Assembly: GCA_963718745.1 (NCBI GenBank)
Contig: OY970370.1
Coordinates: 372,001 to 436,000, forward strand
DNA: 64,000 nucleotides
Direction: 5' to 3'
Source: Fermentibacter sp963718745 [NCBI: Candidatus Fermentibacterota bacterium]
Lineage (GTDB): Bacteria; Fermentibacterota; Fermentibacteria; Fermentibacterales
A program made the translations under genes and the position numbers. Shown in pieces: positions 12,911-17,653 of the stretch (positions are counted from its first letter, which is position 1; each line of letters begins with the position of its first letter). Under the pieces are notes generated by a model. It had not been told where the DNA came from. It did not search any database and saw nothing but the letters and a program-made list of their open reading frames with translations.

Positions 12911-13651
12911 TCACTCGAAACTGTGCACCATCCAGCAGTTGGGATCTTCATACCTCCCCGAGTCCGACTCGAGGTCGATCCGCACCGGCTGGAGAGCACC
13001 AGGCACCACGTAACTCCCGCTTCCCGGGAAATCCATCCCCGTCCATTCCCGCCACTGTGCAACCGAGCCCTCCACGGCGAGAGTGCCCGGCGCTATCGAG
13101 ATCATCACGGCCCCCATCCGTTCATGGATCCTGAGCCAGGGGTCGAACAGGGAGCCGTCCAGCCTCCTCCAGGCCGAGTAGCTCTCCATCGGGATCAGCG
13201 GATAGAGGCTCTTGAGCACGGGTCTCACGGGAGCGACGAGGCGGTGGCAGGAGTTATCCGAGGCAAGCCTCCTCATCTCCACGAGGACGGTCTCGCTGAG
13301 GCTCCTGCCCCGCAGAGCCGGATCGACCATCACGCCGAGTGCCGCAAAAGTGTTCGGGGCTTCGCCCGAGCGCATCAGGTCGAGGGCACGCCCGATCACG
13401 CCGTCGATCGACCGGGGCAGATCCCGGTCGCTTCCGTCCCACGACAGAGGGACGCAGTGGCCGACCGCCGCGAGGGATCCATCCGGATCGATGAGCAGAA
13501 GCTGGAACCGGGCGAACTCCTCGAACAGGCAGTGCCATCGGCCGACGTTTCCATGAAGGAGGAACAGGGGCCATGAGAGCGCACTGAGCCTGTCGACCAT
13601 CGGCCTGCACCCGGGCTCCTCCTCGAAAGTCCGGAAACCCCCGGTCCTCAT
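12911..13651 (-). CDS. GNAT-like acyltransferase
   Basis: About 246 residues. The central stretch TFAALGVMVDPALRGRSLSE resembles motif A of GNAT acetyltransferases (V-x-x-x-x-R-G-x-S), followed by a helix and the DPWLRIHERMGA and WREWTGMDFP blocks found in a family of GNAT-fold proteins often linked to lipid or acyl-group metabolism. The substrate is unknown. The ATG overlaps the methyltransferase stop by 3 nt (ATGA); ATG 13660 is an alternative. Confidence 0.65.
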   Translation of the reverse strand: MRTGGFRTFEEEPGCRPMVDRLSALSWPLFLLHGNVGRWHCLFEEFARFQLLLIDPDGSLAAVGHCVPLSWDGSDRDLPRSIDGVIGRALDLMRSGEAPNTFAALGVMVDPALRGRSLSETVLVEMRRLASDNSCHRLVAPVRPVLKSLYPLIPMESYSAWRRLDGSLFDPWLRIHERMGAVMISIAPGTLAVEGSVAQWREWTGMDFPGSGSYVVPGALQPVRIDLESDSGRYEDPNCWMVHSFE

Positions 13652-14349
13652 GCTCCGCATACCGCCCAGACCACCGGCAGGGTGATCTCCACCGGGTGTG
13701 CGCCCCATGCGTCCGGACCAGCCGGATCGGTTCCGTGCCCCAGCACGCCCTCCAGGAAGAGCGGATCCAGTTCCCGCGTGGATATGGCGGCCCCGGAGTG
13801 GAGCAGACGCAGCCCCGCGCCTGTGAGAGCGTCCCGAAGCCTCCCGGCGAGCCGTGTGTTGAGCCCGTCGTGCTCCATCCTGCCGCGGAGCAGGTCGAGG
13901 CAGCCCTCCGATGTCGCGCTCGCGGCATTCCAGTCGTACTCACCCATTACAGCGAGCCTCCCACCCGGACGGAGACAGCCGGCGAGGCCGGAGAGGAACC
14001 CTTCGGGATCGGCAAGTTCGAGCAGCACGTGAGACAGGAGGATAATCCCGGCTCCGGGGAAACGGCATCTCTCGAGATCGCAGACGACGGTCTTCAATCC
14101 CGGCACACGCTCCCGCGCAAGCCCCAGAGCTTCTTCGTCCCTGTCGAACCCGGTCAGCGAGGCCCCGGTCAGCGGCGCGACCTCTCTCATGATCAGGCCG
14201 GTCCCGCATCCGGGTTCGATTATGCTCCCGGACCGCCTCAGAGGAATGAGACCGTATATGAACCTGCGCAGCCGGGCCGTCTCCTCGAACTGCCTCCTGT
14301 AGACTGCGTCCCTCGCCTCGAGCGGCAGGTCGTACCAGGTTCCTCTCAC
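13648..14349 (-). CDS. class I SAM-dependent methyltransferase
   Basis: 233 residues. Motif I SIIEPGCGTGLIMREV, the acidic end of beta-2 (GFDRDEEAL), DLERCRFPGAGIILLSHVL and the LRPGGRLAVMGEYDW post-motif define a Rossmann-fold methyltransferase. The N-terminal WYDLPLEARDAVYRRQFEE is typical of methyltransferases of the UbiE/Methyltransf_11 sort. GTG start 9 nt after the radical SAM stop. Its place directly behind the radical SAM/SPASM gene suggests either a second modification of the same substrate or simple co-regulation. Confidence 0.85.
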   Translation of the reverse strand: MRGTWYDLPLEARDAVYRRQFEETARLRRFIYGLIPLRRSGSIIEPGCGTGLIMREVAPLTGASLTGFDRDEEALGLARERVPGLKTVVCDLERCRFPGAGIILLSHVLLELADPEGFLSGLAGCLRPGGRLAVMGEYDWNAASATSEGCLDLLRGRMEHDGLNTRLAGRLRDALTGAGLRLLHSGAAISTRELDPLFLEGVLGHGTDPAGPDAWGAHPVEITLPVVWAVCGA

Positions 14350-14358
14350 TTCGTCGGC

Positions 14359-15690
14359 TCAGGGATTGGAGAGCATGTCGGGGCAGGCGATCCCCGCGTC
14401 ACCCGTCGAGAGGGGGCACCCACCCCCGCAGAGCGCCGCATCGCTGCAGTCTCGACATCCCTCCGGGAGCCAGTCCCTTTCCCGGATCGAGCGCATCAGG
14501 GGTGAATTATAAATACTGTCCCAGGGATCCTTGAGTATGTTTCCTGCTATCTTATAGTAACTCTGGCAGGGAATTACGCTTCCGTCAGGTTCGATGCAGA
14601 TATTGTACTGTCCCGCAGTGCACCGCTTGGGGCCCAGCCCCAGACTCACAGGATCCAGTTCACAGTAGCGGGTGGGAGAATACCAGATCATCCGGAGCCC
14701 CAGCCGCCCGGCTTCCTCGCTGATGCCTCCGAGGAGGGGCTTCGTCTCGTCAGGGCCGAGCTCGACTCCCGACCCGGGACCCCTGCCGCTGTGGATGATG
14801 CTGTTCACGGCAAACGCCTTCAGGCCGAGGCCCGCGAGGAACGCGGGCAGCCTGGCCGCGCCTGCGGCGTTCCTGCGGGTGAGGGTGGTGTTGGTGATAG
14901 CGTAGAGCCCCGCCGCAACTGCATTCCGCAGGCCCTCGACCGTCGCGGCGAATGATTCCGCCTGCGTCATCCCGTTGTGGACGGACTCGTCCGCCGATTC
15001 GAGGGTGACCTGAACGTAGTCGAGTCCCGCCGAAACCAGCGAATCGAGATAGGAACGGTCCGCGAGCCTCACACCGTTCGTGAGCAGGCCCGCCACCATG
15101 CCCAGGCTCTCTGCATGGGCTATCAGCGCAGGGAGATCGTCCCTCAGGGTGGCCTCGCCCCCGGTGAAGGCTACGTGGGGTACTCCGTTGTCCCACAGGG
15201 TGCCCATCGCCTTCCTCCACTGGTCGGCGTCCATCTCCTCGCTCTGCCTGTCGCCGTTGTAGCAGTGCAGGCAGTCGACGTTGCACCGGTAGGTGAGCGC
15301 CAGATCGGCCCTGAAGGGCGCCTCGACCGGCACCGAGAATGGTTCCAGGCGGTCGAGCCCCAGGAACTCCACGGGGCAACCCTCGCTCTCCGCAGAGAGT
15401 GCATCCAGCACGCGCGCAACGGCCTCCAGATCGGAACCGGCCTGTCTCCTGCCGGTTCTGTACCTTCTCGTGATAAGCCTGATCGCTTCCCCGGGCCTCG
15501 TCTCCTCGAGAAGGAGCCAGGCGATGTCGCACGCGGTGCGGTTCAGATGGACGATCTTCGAGGCGTCTATGGACATTACCCCGCCTCCGTCCCTGCCGAT
15601 CCTGAGGTGTATCCGTCTCGAGCCGCGCCTGTAGTGGTGGAGCCCTGCGGGGGCGATCGCGTCGGGAGGAGCCATGGAGAAGAGCTTCAT
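14359..15690 (-). CDS. radical SAM/SPASM protein with PqqD-like (RRE) N-terminal domain
   Basis: 443 residues. Residues about 20-100 (HLRIGRDGGGVMSIDASKIV, HLNRTACDIAWLLLE, EAIRLITRRY) look like a PqqD-type recognition element. The radical SAM motif is CNVDCLHCY (Cys136, 140, 143), followed by AFTGGEATLRDDL. The C-terminus is a SPASM domain with about eight Cys (357, 365, 375, 412, 415, 421, 425, 436; GCRDCSDAALCGGGCPLS) for auxiliary FeS clusters. This architecture is that of peptide-modifying enzymes such as PqqE and sactipeptide maturases. Its ATG overlaps the stop of the membrane protein with the Cys-Ala tail by 4 nt, so that tail is the natural candidate substrate. Confidence 0.9.
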   Translation of the reverse strand: MKLFSMAPPDAIAPAGLHHYRRGSRRIHLRIGRDGGGVMSIDASKIVHLNRTACDIAWLLLEETRPGEAIRLITRRYRTGRRQAGSDLEAVARVLDALSAESEGCPVEFLGLDRLEPFSVPVEAPFRADLALTYRCNVDCLHCYNGDRQSEEMDADQWRKAMGTLWDNGVPHVAFTGGEATLRDDLPALIAHAESLGMVAGLLTNGVRLADRSYLDSLVSAGLDYVQVTLESADESVHNGMTQAESFAATVEGLRNAVAAGLYAITNTTLTRRNAAGAARLPAFLAGLGLKAFAVNSIIHSGRGPGSGVELGPDETKPLLGGISEEAGRLGLRMIWYSPTRYCELDPVSLGLGPKRCTAGQYNICIEPDGSVIPCQSYYKIAGNILKDPWDSIYNSPLMRSIRERDWLPEGCRDCSDAALCGGGCPLSTGDAGIACPDMLSNP

Positions 15691-17303
15691 CTCCCACCTC
15701 CGGCACAGGCGCAGGCACAGCCCGCGCAGGCGCAGGCGCAGGCGCACGACGATCCGCCGGACCTGCCGCCGCCCGACCTGGTCGTGGAGACGGGAATCGG
15801 GTTCGTGACGGCCGTGACGCCGCTCGCGAGCGAGGTGAAGGACGAGACAAACCCTCCGGCGGCGGACTCCAGGGAGCCCGCGATCCTCGAGCAGGCCTGA
15901 ACCATGTTCACGCTGCCCTGGCCCGTCATCAGCCTGCCCGCACCCTGCGGATGCAGGACGGGGATCGGGAACACCGCGGTGCCAGGCAGCCTCCCGAGTC
16001 TGGAGTCGAAGTCATCGTCCATCATCATCCACTGGAGGTTGTCGCTGAGAACCGCCCCGACGGCTTCGGGCGTCCCCGCACCGGCGGCGGTCCTCCATGC
16101 GGAGGAGATAATCGACCTGTAGTACTCCCTCGTCTCCTTCGCCGAGAAACCGGCCATCTTCTCCTTCAGCTCCTTCACCATCTTCACGAAGGCCAGCCGG
16201 AGCTTATCGGGGTCCATGGACGATCTGCCCGGCGAATCGTCCTTCAGTGCGGCCAGGAAGTCCTTCTCGTACTCGTTCAGACCCTCCGGTTCAGGGGTGT
16301 TGCGCTTCATCGAGGGTCTGGCGCTGCCCTCCCCCCCCGCGGCCGGGATGTCCAGGTCCACTGCGCCCTTCAGGACCAGACCGTAGAGGATCAGAGCGGA
16401 GACCTTGTCCAGCTTCAGTTCCAGGAGCATCGCAGCCATCGGCGCGGTCAGCCCGCGCTTGATGCCAGTCCCTTCTACGCCCAGCCTGGGCGGCAGGTAC
16501 TCGAGCCTCCTGCTGCGGCCCTTCCGGATGGCCAGGAACATCAAGAGCAGGAAACCGACGGGGAAGACACCGCCGCAGATGGCCGGACAGGCGTTCTCGA
16601 ACCATGAGCGCGACGGGGGGCGCCAGCCGTCGTTCGGGTTGTAGGCAGTCGCGATCTCGCCGGTTATGAGGTCGGCCGGATAGGACACCCCCAGCCAGTA
16701 CTGGCTGGACATGTTCCTCTGGAAACGCCACTCGTAGACGACCCTTCCATCGTCGGAGACCCAGGCATCGGTGAACGGGAGCTCGTGGTGCCTTACGGAG
16801 AGAGAATCCGCGCCCTGCGGGAAGGCGAAGGTCACCGTGCAGTCGCTCTGCCCCTGCAGGCAGACCGGGTCGAACCATGTCGGGGAGAACTCTGTGGAGG
16901 CGAGAGCCGGATCGGAGGAGTCGCGGAAGGCCATTCCGGGATTGACCCCGGAAACTCTCAGGACAGCCGTCTCCCCCGGCATTATCCTGTTCTCGCCCAG
17001 CGGTATCTCCACTCCTATGGCTATGTACTCGGATGGCCTGATAGTCGTGAGCTGGACGCCGTCCAGTTCGGCTGCCACCGACTCTAGATCGTATCCCGCA
17101 GTGGGGAAGCCGATGTCCACTATGTCGATCGGATCCGCGCCGGGCTGGCATCTGATGGTCAGTTCATAGTAGATCTCGAGAGAGGCATAGGATGACAGGG
17201 ACAGGTTACATACATATTTCGGGATCTCGAACCTGTAAGTCTGAGCCGAGGCAGTGCCGGCGGCATATAGCGCCGATAAACAGCAAATGAAGCGGGCTAC
17301 CAT
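15687..17303 (-). CDS. DUF2207-like membrane protein with C-terminal Cys-Ala repeat tail (candidate radical SAM substrate)
   Basis: 538 residues. Signal peptide at 1-20 (MVARFICCLSALYAAGTASA), extracytoplasmic beta-rich domain about 21-235, one membrane helix about 240-259 (ICGGVFPVGFLLLMFLAI) followed by RKGRSRR, so the rest should be cytosolic. The part after the helix (YLPPRLGVEGTG, MAAMLLELKLDKVSALILYG, LNEYEKDFLAAL) follows the DUF2207 layout. The protein ends in a Ser/Gly linker and CACACACAGCACACAGGGR: seven Cys alternating with Ala. Synonymous codon changes (TGC/TGT, GCC/GCG) keep this peptide pattern. The stop overlaps the radical SAM start (ATGA), and the start overlaps the upstream zinc-ribbon gene by 7 nt. 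Confidence 0.8.
   Translation of the reverse strand: MVARFICCLSALYAAGTASAQTYRFEIPKYVCNLSLSSYASLEIYYELTIRCQPGADPIDIVDIGFPTAGYDLESVAAELDGVQLTTIRPSEYIAIGVEIPLGENRIMPGETAVLRVSGVNPGMAFRDSSDPALASTEFSPTWFDPVCLQGQSDCTVTFAFPQGADSLSVRHHELPFTDAWVSDDGRVVYEWRFQRNMSSQYWLGVSYPADLITGEIATAYNPNDGWRPPSRSWFENACPAICGGVFPVGFLLLMFLAIRKGRSRRLEYLPPRLGVEGTGIKRGLTAPMAAMLLELKLDKVSALILYGLVLKGAVDLDIPAAGGEGSARPSMKRNTPEPEGLNEYEKDFLAALKDDSPGRSSMDPDKLRLAFVKMVKELKEKMAGFSAKETREYYRSIISSAWRTAAGAGTPEAVGAVLSDNLQWMMMDDDFDSRLGRLPGTAVFPIPVLHPQGAGRLMTGQGSVNMVQACSRIAGSLESAAGGFVSSFTSLASGVTAVTNPIPVSTTRSGGGRSGGSSCACACACAGCACACAGGGR
15702..15746 (-). repeat. coding repeat for the Cys-Ala tail
   Basis: TGCGCC-type hexamers in tandem encode C-A four times, one Gly, then C-A three times. 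Codons vary at third positions (TGC/TGT, GCC/GCG), so the unit is kept as protein rather than as a perfect DNA microsatellite. Confidence 0.8.
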
Positions 17304-17653
17304 TTGGGAGCTTCCTCTACCTGATACTCGGACTTGCAGTAGGGACAGGTTATAAATACCGCACCTGCACGGACTGCGACATCCTTGGAGGCGAGCGCTC
17401 CGCCGCACTTGGTGCAGCTGATCTCCTGGAGCTTCACATCGCCGGAAAAATCGATCCTCTGGGTCGTACCGCCCGGGTTGTCCTGCTCTACGTGTTTCCG
17501 TCTGGACACGAACACGAGCAGGAAGATGCCCACTCCGCACATCATCCCGCCTGCGACGAGCCTGGGGACGGTTTTACCGTCTGCAGAGGCGACCATGAAC
17601 ACAAGACCGAGAAGAACGATGATCACCGATATCAGGATCGCGACTGCTCTCAT
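17297..17653 (-). CDS. small two-helix membrane protein with zinc ribbon
   Basis: 118 residues. Two membrane helices (about residues 4-24 and 32-50; VAILISVIIVLLGLVFMVAS and LVAGGMMCGVGIFLLVF) are followed by a cytosolic ribbon with two CxxC knuckles, CTKCGGAL and CPYCKSEYQ. It is the first gene of the radical SAM run and overlaps the DUF2207-like start by 7 nt. It may be a partner of that membrane protein, or help deliver metal or the substrate tail to the maturase (inference). Confidence 0.65.
   Translation of the reverse strand: MRAVAILISVIIVLLGLVFMVASADGKTVPRLVAGGMMCGVGIFLLVFVSRRKHVEQDNPGGTTQRIDFSGDVKLQEISCTKCGGALASKDVAVRAGAVFITCPYCKSEYQVEEAPKW

What the first reader, a model, noticed from the sequence alone, without database searches (positions are those of the whole stretch)
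14359..17653. Membrane protein with Cys-Ala tail overlapped by an RRE-radical SAM/SPASM gene: candidate new peptide-modification system
The DUF2207-like protein ends in CACACACAGCACACAGGGR, seven Cys alternating with Ala, predicted cytosolic from the signal peptide and single helix. Its stop overlaps the start of a radical SAM/SPASM protein with a PqqD-like N-terminus (ATGA), the architecture of peptide maturases that bind a leader and link Cys to neighbouring residues. Synonymous codon changes in the tail argue for selection on the peptide. Here the substrate would be the tail of a membrane protein, not a short free peptide. A zinc-ribbon membrane protein leads the operon and a methyltransferase follows.
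Basis: partly seen in the sequence, partly recalled or inferred. Interest (0 to 1): 0.9.

Follow-up and report, generated by a model that had tools for sequence, protein, structure and literature searches.

The report
Enzyme-paired cysteine-alanine tail on membrane proteins
Many bacteria and archaea carry a membrane protein with a strange alternating cysteine-alanine tail, usually encoded beside one particular radical-chemistry enzyme, which points to a widespread and apparently undescribed system for chemically modifying the tail of a membrane protein.

Summary
On the minus strand the window holds an operon: zinc-ribbon membrane protein, DUF2207-like single-pass protein ending SSCACACACAGCACACAGGGR, radical SAM/SPASM enzyme with a PqqD/RRE-like N-terminus (ATGA overlap), methyltransferase. 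Such tails recur in many bacterial phyla and in archaea, including Asgard. In the 42 genomes of the window's probable phylum (Fermentibacterota) enzyme and tail occur in the same 25; in 201 Chloroflexota genomes in the same 12 (one further pattern match looks like chance). With the enzyme as query, 55 of 55 positive genomes in four phyla have a Cys-Ala tail (5 were seeds). A homologous protein with another Cys tail (ACHS repeats) is directly followed by a paralogous enzyme in 3 of 3 genomes found. TIGR04222 proteins with Gly-Cys tails sit beside MNIO enzymes in some genomes: a parallel, partly proposed in print. Best reading: a dedicated radical SAM maturase modifies the cytosolic tail. That the tail is the substrate is strongly inferred, not shown; the chemistry (Cys thioether most likely) and the role are open. 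No paper listed in nine searches describes this tail-enzyme system.

The parts
17297..17653 (-). Membrane protein with two predicted helices and a C-terminal zinc ribbon (CxxC...CPYC), 118 aa; first gene of the operon
   Evidence: homologue directly upstream of the tail gene in 30 of 46 type I tails with enough upstream sequence
15687..17303 (-). Tail protein, 538 aa: signal peptide, extracytoplasmic beta domain, one transmembrane helix, cytosolic helical domain, Cys-Ala tail
   Evidence: model of mean pLDDT 81.1 with beta strands between 25 and 209, helix 247-266, helices between 287 and 437; topology
15702..15746 (-). Cys-Ala core of the tail, CACACACAGCACACA (7 Cys), followed by GGGR and the stop
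   Evidence: In 45 type I proteins residues 522-524 (CAC) are invariant and 520, 521, 525, 526 are kept in 40, 40, 44 and 36; invariance of 529-537 follows from the search pattern
15687..15701 (-). GGGR-stop codons of the tail; GGAGGT there (15696-15701) also reads as a Shine-Dalgarno sequence 5 nt before the overlapping ATG of the enzyme
   Evidence: sequence read directly; role as a ribosome-binding site is inference
14359..15690 (-). RRE-radical SAM-SPASM enzyme, 443 aa; CxxxCxxC at C136/C140/C143; SPASM Cys 357, 375, 412, 415, 421, 425
15394..15645 (-). PqqD/RRE-like N-terminal domain of the enzyme (about residues 16-99)
   Evidence: four strands then three helices in a model of mean pLDDT 91.4; PF05402 22.6 bits, matched at E up to 0.01 by 24 of 56 family members
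13648..14349 (-). Class I SAM-dependent methyltransferase, 233 aa
   Evidence: PF08241 2.6e-12; homologue downstream in 16 of 27 type I tails with at least 3.8 kb of downstream sequence

Best explanation
A dedicated RRE-radical SAM/SPASM maturase modifies the cytosolic Cys-Ala tail of a DUF2207-superfamily membrane protein: a RiPP-like maturation carried out on the end of an anchored protein. SHOWN by sequence: the operon, the recurring tail across two domains of life, the pairing with one enzyme family, an intact active-site motif, the maturase fold (predicted), and a second tail class paired with a paralogous enzyme. INFERRED: the RRE-like domain docks on the stretch before the tail (the conserved F..xVTxxTNPxP region in type I, or the Gly-rich linker); the enzyme then works along the alternating Cys/Ala positions; the frequent Cys-(A/V/D)-(G/S)-Cys step makes a turn, so that two Cys-bearing strands face each other. 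The likeliest product is a set of Cys-derived C-S crosslinks (about -2.016 Da each), giving a rigid thioether hairpin that serves as a metal or redox element under the membrane together with the zinc ribbon, which is a neighbouring gene in many type I operons and part of the tail protein in some type II members. The methyltransferase and the Cys-less pseudo-radical-SAM paralogue in some lineages would be accessory subunits.
For: Co-occurrence (phylum names follow the titles of the seed loci): Fermentibacterota, enzyme in 25 of 42 genomes, tail pattern in 25 of 42 and the same 25 (Fisher p 4e-12); the two matches lie 1-52 nt apart in the 24 where both are on one contig. Chloroflexota: enzyme 12 of 201, pattern 13 of 201, both 12, enzyme only 0 (p 2e-18); the 13th, G203, does not look like a membrane-protein tail. 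Some SPASM protein is found in 103 of the same 201, 90 of them without the pattern, so having a SPASM protein does not explain it. Enzyme-only queries: phylum of L047 (Bacillota) 10 of 249 positive, 10 of 10 with tail; phylum of L050 (Bathyarchaeota genome) 8 of 200, 8 of 8 with tail. Tail-first: of 114 tails, 78 have an enzyme with CxxxCxxC within 2 kb on the same strand; 30 genomes chosen for a tail have one pattern match each and a strong enzyme match each, on another contig in 4. Fold: SkfB and SuiB first. Second tail class with its own enzyme.
Against: No modification was observed. 36 of 114 tails lack an intact same-strand enzyme within 2 kb in the sequence held: 14 have only a truncated or Cys-less match (L089 and L109 have an intact one on the other strand), 1 is a second copy in a locus with the enzyme elsewhere, 21 have none. 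Of the 21, 15 are cut by a record end on the side where the enzyme lies in their kin; L103, L105, L115, L116, L141, L142 are not; for L103, L116, L142 the enzyme is on another contig. The conservation of CACACAGGG in tail-first sets is by construction, since that was the search pattern. Linked co-occurrence shows functional coupling, not that the tail is the substrate. The tail is modelled as disordered (pLDDT under 50, residues 505-532), so hairpin and crosslinks are guesswork. A run of CxC motifs could bind metal unmodified. Type II enzymes lack three SPASM Cys that type I has (412, 415, 421), so the chemistry may not be uniform. Zinc ribbon and methyltransferase are not universal (30 of 46, 16 of 27).
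Confidence: 0.78

Rival explanations
1. The tail is the substrate, but the chemistry is not a thioether: for example epimerisation of every second residue to the D form (as recalled for polytheonamide-type epimerases), oxidation of Cys as by anaerobic sulfatase maturases, or C-C bond formation.
For: Strict every-second-residue alternation would suit a processive epimerase; anaerobic sulfatase maturases and the epimerase EpeE also appear among the structural matches (4k37-4k39, 8ai3/8ai4).
Against: The best matches are RRE-bearing crosslinking maturases (SkfB, SuiB; their RRE is recalled); many Cys in a row of alternations argue that sulfur takes part; a second tail class keeps the Cys but changes the spacing (ACHS).
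Confidence: 0.25
2. The tail is an unmodified metal-binding or redox element, and the radical SAM enzyme acts on another molecule in the same pathway (or receives metal or electrons from the tail).
For: CxCxC runs and a neighbouring zinc ribbon look metal-binding (sequence); the methyltransferase could act on a small molecule.
Against: The enzyme has the RRE-SPASM build of peptide maturases, and each of two tail classes has its own enzyme paralogue directly after the tail gene, as expected for enzyme and substrate.
Confidence: 0.1
3. The tail is a precursor: after modification it is cut from its anchor and released as a free peptide or cofactor, as with PQQ or mycofactocin.
For: Related maturases make such products (PqqE and mycofactocin maturase profiles match at 2e-33 and 5e-24, below their cut-offs). 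Type II tails carry a further C-terminal extension (AGCSxKDFY) that might be trimmed.
Against: I recognised no protease among the neighbour clusters of four or more loci printed (judged by eye); in type I the tail ends the protein within a few residues; a large conserved membrane body would be wasteful.
Confidence: 0.1
4. A low-complexity artefact of a DNA repeat or of GC-rich sequence.
For: Tandem Repeats Finder reports a 6-base repeat at 15702-15746.
Against: Both Cys codons and all four Ala codons are used; the backwards-read control pattern gives 0 matches in every genome row; the peptide recurs across two domains of life beside one enzyme family.
Confidence: 0.005

Closest known systems
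TIGR04222 membrane proteins with Cys/Gly-rich tails and their MNIO (DUF692, PF05114) enzymes (PMC12452194, proposed there in silico)
   Same: Membrane protein of a related superfamily, low-complexity Cys tail, RiPP-type oxidative enzyme next door. In L181 and L182 a TIGR04222 protein ending in GCGGCGG repeats is directly followed by a PF05114 gene. The cytosolic domain of type I tail proteins aligns with them (hhalign 83%).
   Different: Enzyme is MNIO, not radical SAM; the tail is Gly-Cys, not Cys-Ala, and is predicted periplasmic in that paper, whereas here it is predicted cytosolic. No relative of the L181/L182 MNIO among 10,193 ORFs of the 113 Cys-Ala loci, no radical SAM of this family in the ten short TIGR04222 loci.
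RRE-SPASM sactipeptide/ranthipeptide maturases (SkfB 6efn, SuiB 5v1q, 5why which I recall as CteB)
   Same: Fold aligned over 434-458 columns (gaps included) with SkfB and SuiB, so including the N-terminal domain; CxxxCxxC and SPASM; candidate substrate gene adjacent.
   Different: Known substrates are short free peptides (recalled); here a ~540-residue membrane protein. No named maturase model shown is met: best NCBIfam score 115.6 against a cut-off of 381.35 (PqqE).
QhpD-type SPASM enzymes that crosslink a protein subunit (recalled, not tested)
   Same: Radical SAM/SPASM enzyme making Cys thioethers in a protein, not a short peptide.
   Different: The substrate there is an enzyme subunit with Cys-to-Asp/Glu links; no Cys-Ala alternation, no membrane anchor (recalled).
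DUF2207 membrane proteins (PF09972/PF20990)
   Same: Signal peptide, beta domain, transmembrane helix, cytosolic domain and Gly-rich tail; profile match to a true DUF2207 protein (hhalign 90%).
   Different: The DUF2207 protein compared (L184) has a Gly-rich tail without Cys; the window protein does not reach the Pfam model.

Membership tests
RRE-containing radical SAM/SPASM peptide maturases | CxxxCxxC radical SAM motif | tested here: met
   C136, C140, C143 in the window enzyme and in 56 of 56 aligned rows, which were chosen as rows with the motif; PF04055 in 56 of 56
RRE-containing radical SAM/SPASM peptide maturases | SPASM domain with auxiliary-cluster Cys | tested here: met
   PF13186 at E up to 0.01 in 56 of 56. 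Cys 357, 375, 412, 415, 421, 425 in 38 of 38 type I enzymes; 412, 415, 421 absent in 18 of 18 type II
RRE-containing radical SAM/SPASM peptide maturases | RRE/PqqD-like leader-binding domain | tested here: met
   PF05402 at E up to 0.01 in 24 of 56, window 22.6 bits against a cut-off of 23.4, paralogue P0006 38.0 bits; model aligns over 434-458 columns with SkfB and SuiB. Binding itself untested
RRE-containing radical SAM/SPASM peptide maturases | Short free precursor peptide as substrate | tested here: not met
   The Cys-rich candidate is the end of a 538-aa signal-peptide and transmembrane protein
Sactipeptides/ranthipeptides | Cys thioether crosslinks in the product | not testable with these tools
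   Needs mass spectrometry
Named NCBIfam radical SAM maturases (PqqE, MftC, SkfB, StsB, HxsC, WgkB, GeoRSP and others) | Score above the curated cut-off | tested here: not met
   None of the 25 best of 72 matches reaches its cut-off, nor any of the 13 listed
DUF2207 (PF09972) | Score above the gathering cut-off | tested here: not met
   No match for the window protein; E up to 0.01 in 1 of 45 type I and 6 of 38 type II proteins. A homologue with the other tail class passes, 25.5 against 24.4
TIGR04222 | Score above the curated cut-off | tested here: not met
   No match for the window protein; weak match in 5 of 45 type I proteins, best E 3e-4
TIGR04222-MNIO tail system | Adjacent MNIO enzyme | tested here: not met
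   0 relatives of the L181/L182 MNIO among 10,193 ORFs of the 113 Cys-Ala loci

The most novel reading that the evidence does not exclude
DUF2207/TIGR04222-type membrane proteins form a general class of membrane-anchored RiPP-like substrates whose Cys-rich C-terminal tails are matured by dedicated enzymes: radical SAM/SPASM in (from memory) mostly anaerobic lineages of both domains, for Cys-Ala tails and, with a paralogous enzyme, for Cys-His ACHS tails; and MNIO enzymes for Gly-Cys tails elsewhere. The Cys-Ala version is old and shared by bacteria and archaea, including Asgard archaea, so its product is likely a widely used membrane-proximal metal or redox element and not a secondary metabolite.
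Probability: 0.55. Interest if true: 0.93.

Novelty: new variant of a known kind. Interest (0 to 1): 0.86.

Why it matters
Radical SAM maturases are known mainly for short peptides that become toxins or cofactors (recalled). A recognisably constant tail from gut clostridia to Asgard and methanogenic archaea, usually one copy per genome in the sets searched, suggests a basic function of a modified protein tail that no listed paper has looked for. It gives a ready test (one peptide, one enzyme, one mass shift), a function to look for in DUF2207-type proteins, and a possible oxygen-independent counterpart to the Cys tails proposed as MNIO substrates.

Tried and rejected
Reading the tail as a DNA repeat: rejected on codon use and the backwards-pattern controls. 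Filing the enzyme under a named maturase, or the membrane protein under DUF2207 or TIGR04222: cut-offs not met. Treating G203 as a tail without enzyme: its match lies in a GC-rich frame that does not look like a membrane protein (by eye). L192 and L194 first looked like enzymes without a tail; wider fetches showed the tail just beyond the flank. Viral contigs: of 30 pattern matches only L013 looks like the end of such a protein (98-aa partial frame ending CACACAGGGR), on a contig without the enzyme in the part held; L012 may begin inside a tail; the others look out of context (by eye). Eight viral contigs with CHSACHSACH-like pattern matches hold short repeat ORFs without the enzyme. Fold search of the tail protein gave beta-domain matches (M1 aminopeptidases, ribophorin-type subunits), of no use for function. 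Plasmid collection: no match to the tail protein. Neighbour clustering printed no further gene in more than 11 loci beyond enzyme, tail protein, methyltransferase and zinc ribbon (the 11-locus cluster is an ABC transporter that looks like background). Rows dropped before counting: L041, L042, L053, L063, L083 (pattern matches that are not tails, judged by eye). Type labels were set by tail length after CACACAGGG, so a cut type II tail (L043) counts as type I. The 'adjacent' count (89 of 114) includes Cys-less and truncated enzyme matches; one search separates them.
Full report
OBSERVATION. The minus strand of the window carries four tightly packed genes: a zinc-ribbon membrane protein (17297-17653), a 538-residue protein (15687-17303) ending SSCACACACAGCACACAGGGR, a radical SAM/SPASM protein (14359-15690) whose ATG overlaps the preceding TGA, and a methyltransferase (13648-14349). 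The window protein itself has no significant Pfam or NCBIfam match. No whole genome is held for the window. The enzyme's closest relative found is 75% identical in a genome of the phylum of L046, Candidatus Sabulitectum, which the taxonomy places in Candidatus Fermentibacterota, so the window most likely belongs there. Below, the phylum of a genome set is named after its seed locus; the genome tool itself tells no taxa.

THE TAIL IS REAL AND WIDESPREAD. They hold 119 matches; five are not tails (L041, L042, L053, L063, L083, dropped by eye) and 114 are taken as tails. The commonest cores are CACACACAGCACACA (25), CACACACACACA (14) and CAHSSCACACACACACA (11), each followed by GGG. Type I tails stop within a few residues of GGG; type II tails, mostly from Clostridia, go on AGCSxKDFYxT. 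Titles and tree labels of the loci name Chloroflexota, Fermentibacterota, Aminicenantes, Zixibacteria, Coatesbacteria, Planctomycetota (Pirellulales), Armatimonadetes, Krumholzibacteria, Bacillota, Heimdall- and Hodarchaeota, Thermoplasmatota, Bathyarchaeota and Thermoproteota. The search pattern fixes CACACAGGG, so the invariance of those nine residues in these sets says nothing. Independent of the pattern, in 45 type I proteins, 24-48% identical to the window's over the whole protein, the upstream residues C522, A523, C524 are kept in 45 of 45, A525 in 44, C520 and A521 in 40, C526 in 36. Cys codons are TGT 375 and TGC 396, and all four Ala codons are used: the peptide, not the DNA, is conserved.

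THE ENZYME GOES WITH THE TAIL. In 42 genomes of the window's probable phylum the enzyme is found in 25 and the tail pattern in 25, the same ones; the matches lie 1-52 nt apart in the 24 where both are on one contig. In 201 Chloroflexota genomes the enzyme is in 12 and the pattern in 13: both in 12, enzyme only 0, pattern only 1; that one (G203) looks like a chance match in GC-rich sequence. Distances in the 12 are 67-620 nt. Fisher p values are 4e-12 and 2e-18. As a control, a SPASM domain at E up to 1e-5 is found in 103 of the same 201 genomes, among them all 13 with the pattern; 90 have SPASM without the pattern. With the enzyme alone as query, 10 of 249 genomes of the phylum of L047 (Bacillota) and 8 of 200 of the phylum of L050 (a Bathyarchaeota genome) are positive, and all 18 have a nearby Cys-Ala tail, including variants the DNA pattern would miss, such as SSCACACACACASSGGCT and CACACAHGGAR. 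Together this is 55 of 55; five of these (G001, G002, G008, G010, G021) were seeds chosen for having a tail. The enzyme thresholds (1e-60, 1e-90, 1e-120) were mine, and the enzyme profile was built from tail loci; family members below the thresholds, such as the ACHS-type enzymes below, have another tail. Tail-first, 78 of 114 tails have an enzyme with CxxxCxxC within 2 kb on the same strand; 14 have only a truncated or Cys-less match there (two of these, L089 and L109, have an intact enzyme on the other strand), 1 is a second copy in a locus with the enzyme elsewhere, 21 have none in the sequence held. Of the 21, 15 are cut by a record end on the side where the enzyme lies in their kin (nine type II and the four with the GCACACACAGGGR ending upstream, L070 and L133 downstream); six are not: L103, L105, L115, L116, L141, L142. 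For L103, L116 and L142 the genome holds the enzyme on another contig; the other three were not looked up. Thirty genomes chosen for a tail each have one pattern match and a strong enzyme match, worst best-E 4.7e-137, in four cases (G018, G027, G028, G029) on another contig.

THE ENZYME. The 56 aligned enzymes were chosen as rows with CxxxCxxC. Type I enzymes keep Cys 357, 375, 412, 415, 421, 425 of SPASM in 38 of 38; type II enzymes lack 412, 415 and 421 in 18 of 18. The AlphaFold model of the window enzyme has mean pLDDT 91.4, with a four-strand, three-helix N-terminal domain. The best solved-structure matches are the RiPP maturase SkfB and then SuiB, aligned over 434-458 columns, gaps included, followed by BlsE, PqqE and the sactipeptide enzyme 5why. 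Pfam PqqD is matched at E up to 0.01 by 24 of 56 members. No named NCBIfam maturase cut-off among those shown is reached. Sixteen of 85 listed family proteins lack CxxxCxxC; they are probably inactive paralogues, 15 of the 16 in Chloroflexota loci and one in Armatimonadetes (for example L034:3182-4522). The enzyme tree largely follows phyla (12 changes for 13 groups, the least possible), which suggests mostly vertical descent; one long branch (L080) is uncertain.

THE MEMBRANE PROTEIN. The model (mean pLDDT 81.1) shows a signal helix, a confident beta domain (25-209), a transmembrane helix (247-266), a cytosolic helical domain (287-437) and a disordered tail. Simple hydropathy gives one N-terminal hydrophobic segment plus one transmembrane segment in 38 of 38 type II and 27 of 45 type I proteins; 15 of the 45 show two or more further segments, which I take mostly for amphipathic helices of the cytosolic domain but did not resolve. 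In the 30 type I proteins with one transmembrane segment the side after it is the more positive in 30 of 30 (28 of 38 in type II). So the tail is predicted cytosolic, least surely in the multi-segment members such as L037 and L076. Types I and II share the beta domain (hhalign 99.95%, E 4e-38). The family is linked to DUF2207 by profile comparison (with P0005 confirmed as DUF2207) and through a homologue that passes the DUF2207 cut-off.

PARTNERS. A homologue of the zinc-ribbon protein lies directly upstream in 30 of 46 type I tails with enough sequence, and a methyltransferase downstream in 16 of 27. In type II a zinc ribbon can lie inside the tail protein (L047 residues 295-319); Zn_Ribbon_1 is matched at E up to 0.01 by 10 of 38 members. 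The recurring link of tail and zinc ribbon is a clue to a metal-related role, no more.

A SECOND TAIL CLASS. Searching the 201 Chloroflexota genomes with the tail-protein profile found the same 12 genomes plus three partial matches. One is a frame that joins a kinase-like part, the beta domain and a further domain (L221). Two (L220, L222) are similar membrane proteins whose tails read ...ACHSACHSACVHDACHSAC..., each directly followed by its own radical SAM/SPASM gene. The L222 protein aligns with the family over 441 columns, and its enzyme is 35% identical to the window's with Radical_SAM, PqqD and SPASM above their cut-offs; L220 was judged by eye. With the L222 enzyme as query, 3 of 400 genomes match at E up to 1e-85: the source genome, the L220 genome and one new one (G1047), and 3 of 3 have the ACHS tail. 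Two tail classes with two matched enzymes are what an enzyme-substrate relation predicts, though the second class rests on three genomes.

A PARALLEL SYSTEM. TIGR04222 matches were found in 9 of 149 Planctomycetota genomes. Several end in GCGGCGG-type tails (L179, L181, L182). An MNIO-type enzyme lies in 4 of the 10 loci (L178, L180, L181, L182), confirmed by PF05114 in L181 and L182. The paper PMC12452194 (abstract and passages read) proposes from sequence that some such tails are MNIO substrates; in its main text 'radical SAM' occurs only in two reference titles and 'CACA' not at all. No relative of these MNIO enzymes occurs among 10,193 ORFs of the Cys-Ala loci, and no enzyme of this radical SAM family in the ten TIGR04222 loci.

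MECHANISM. Shown: pairing, recurrence, active-site motif; predicted: fold and topology. Inferred: docking by the RRE-like domain on the region before the tail; Cys-centred crosslinking, by analogy with SkfB and the sactipeptide enzyme 5why; a hairpin, because a short Cys-(A/V/D)-(G/S)-Cys or Cys-A-H-S-S-Cys step often separates two Cys-bearing arms (14 cores are an uninterrupted CACACACACACA and do not show it); a metal or redox role. That the tail is the substrate I put near 0.85; thioether as the chemistry near 0.5. The analogies to QhpD and polytheonamide epimerases are recalled, not tested.

NOVELTY. Nine paper searches list no paper on this tail-enzyme pair; two searches listed 20 of 107 and 20 of 141 papers, and only open-licence papers are held, so print elsewhere cannot be excluded. 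Apart from PMC12452194 I saw papers only as listings. The enzyme is of a known kind; the substrate (the tail of an anchored membrane protein), its spread over two domains and the matched second tail class are new as far as these searches show.

Noticed in passing
L220 and L222 (Chloroflexota genomes G166, G041); also L225 (G1047): DUF2207-type protein with a Cys-His tail (ACHSACHSACVHDACHS...) directly followed by a paralogous RRE-radical SAM/SPASM gene; G041 also carries the Cys-Ala system.
   Followed up: partly
L034:3182-4522 and 15 similar proteins listed: Second enzyme paralogue without CxxxCxxC, next to the active one in many Chloroflexota operons; possibly a substrate-binding partner.
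   Followed up: partly
L205:4446-6389 (minus) and L206: In L205 the tail-protein frame stays open into a TPM-domain protein (PF04536), while in L206 a stop separates them; a LemA-like gene lies nearby (LemA named from memory).
   Followed up: no
L181:524-1423 and L182:527-1402 (minus): MNIO genes (PF05114) directly after TIGR04222 proteins with GCGGCGG tails in Planctomycetota.
   Followed up: yes
L221 (genome G230): 900-residue frame joining a serine/threonine-kinase-like part, the tail-protein beta domain (no Cys tail) and a formylglycine-enzyme-like part (domain names by eye).
   Followed up: no
L013:5856-6152 (minus), viral-collection contig: Partial protein ending GGGGGGGCACACAGGGR on a contig of the viral collection, with no enzyme seen in the part held; perhaps host DNA.
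   Followed up: no
L227, L228, L230 (viral contigs): Short frames of ACNSACNSACHSACHSACHSASSKHNAY repeats without this enzyme family in the stretch held; unexplained.
   Followed up: no
window 15696-15701: The GGA GGT codons of the tail also read as a Shine-Dalgarno sequence for the overlapping enzyme gene.
   Followed up: no
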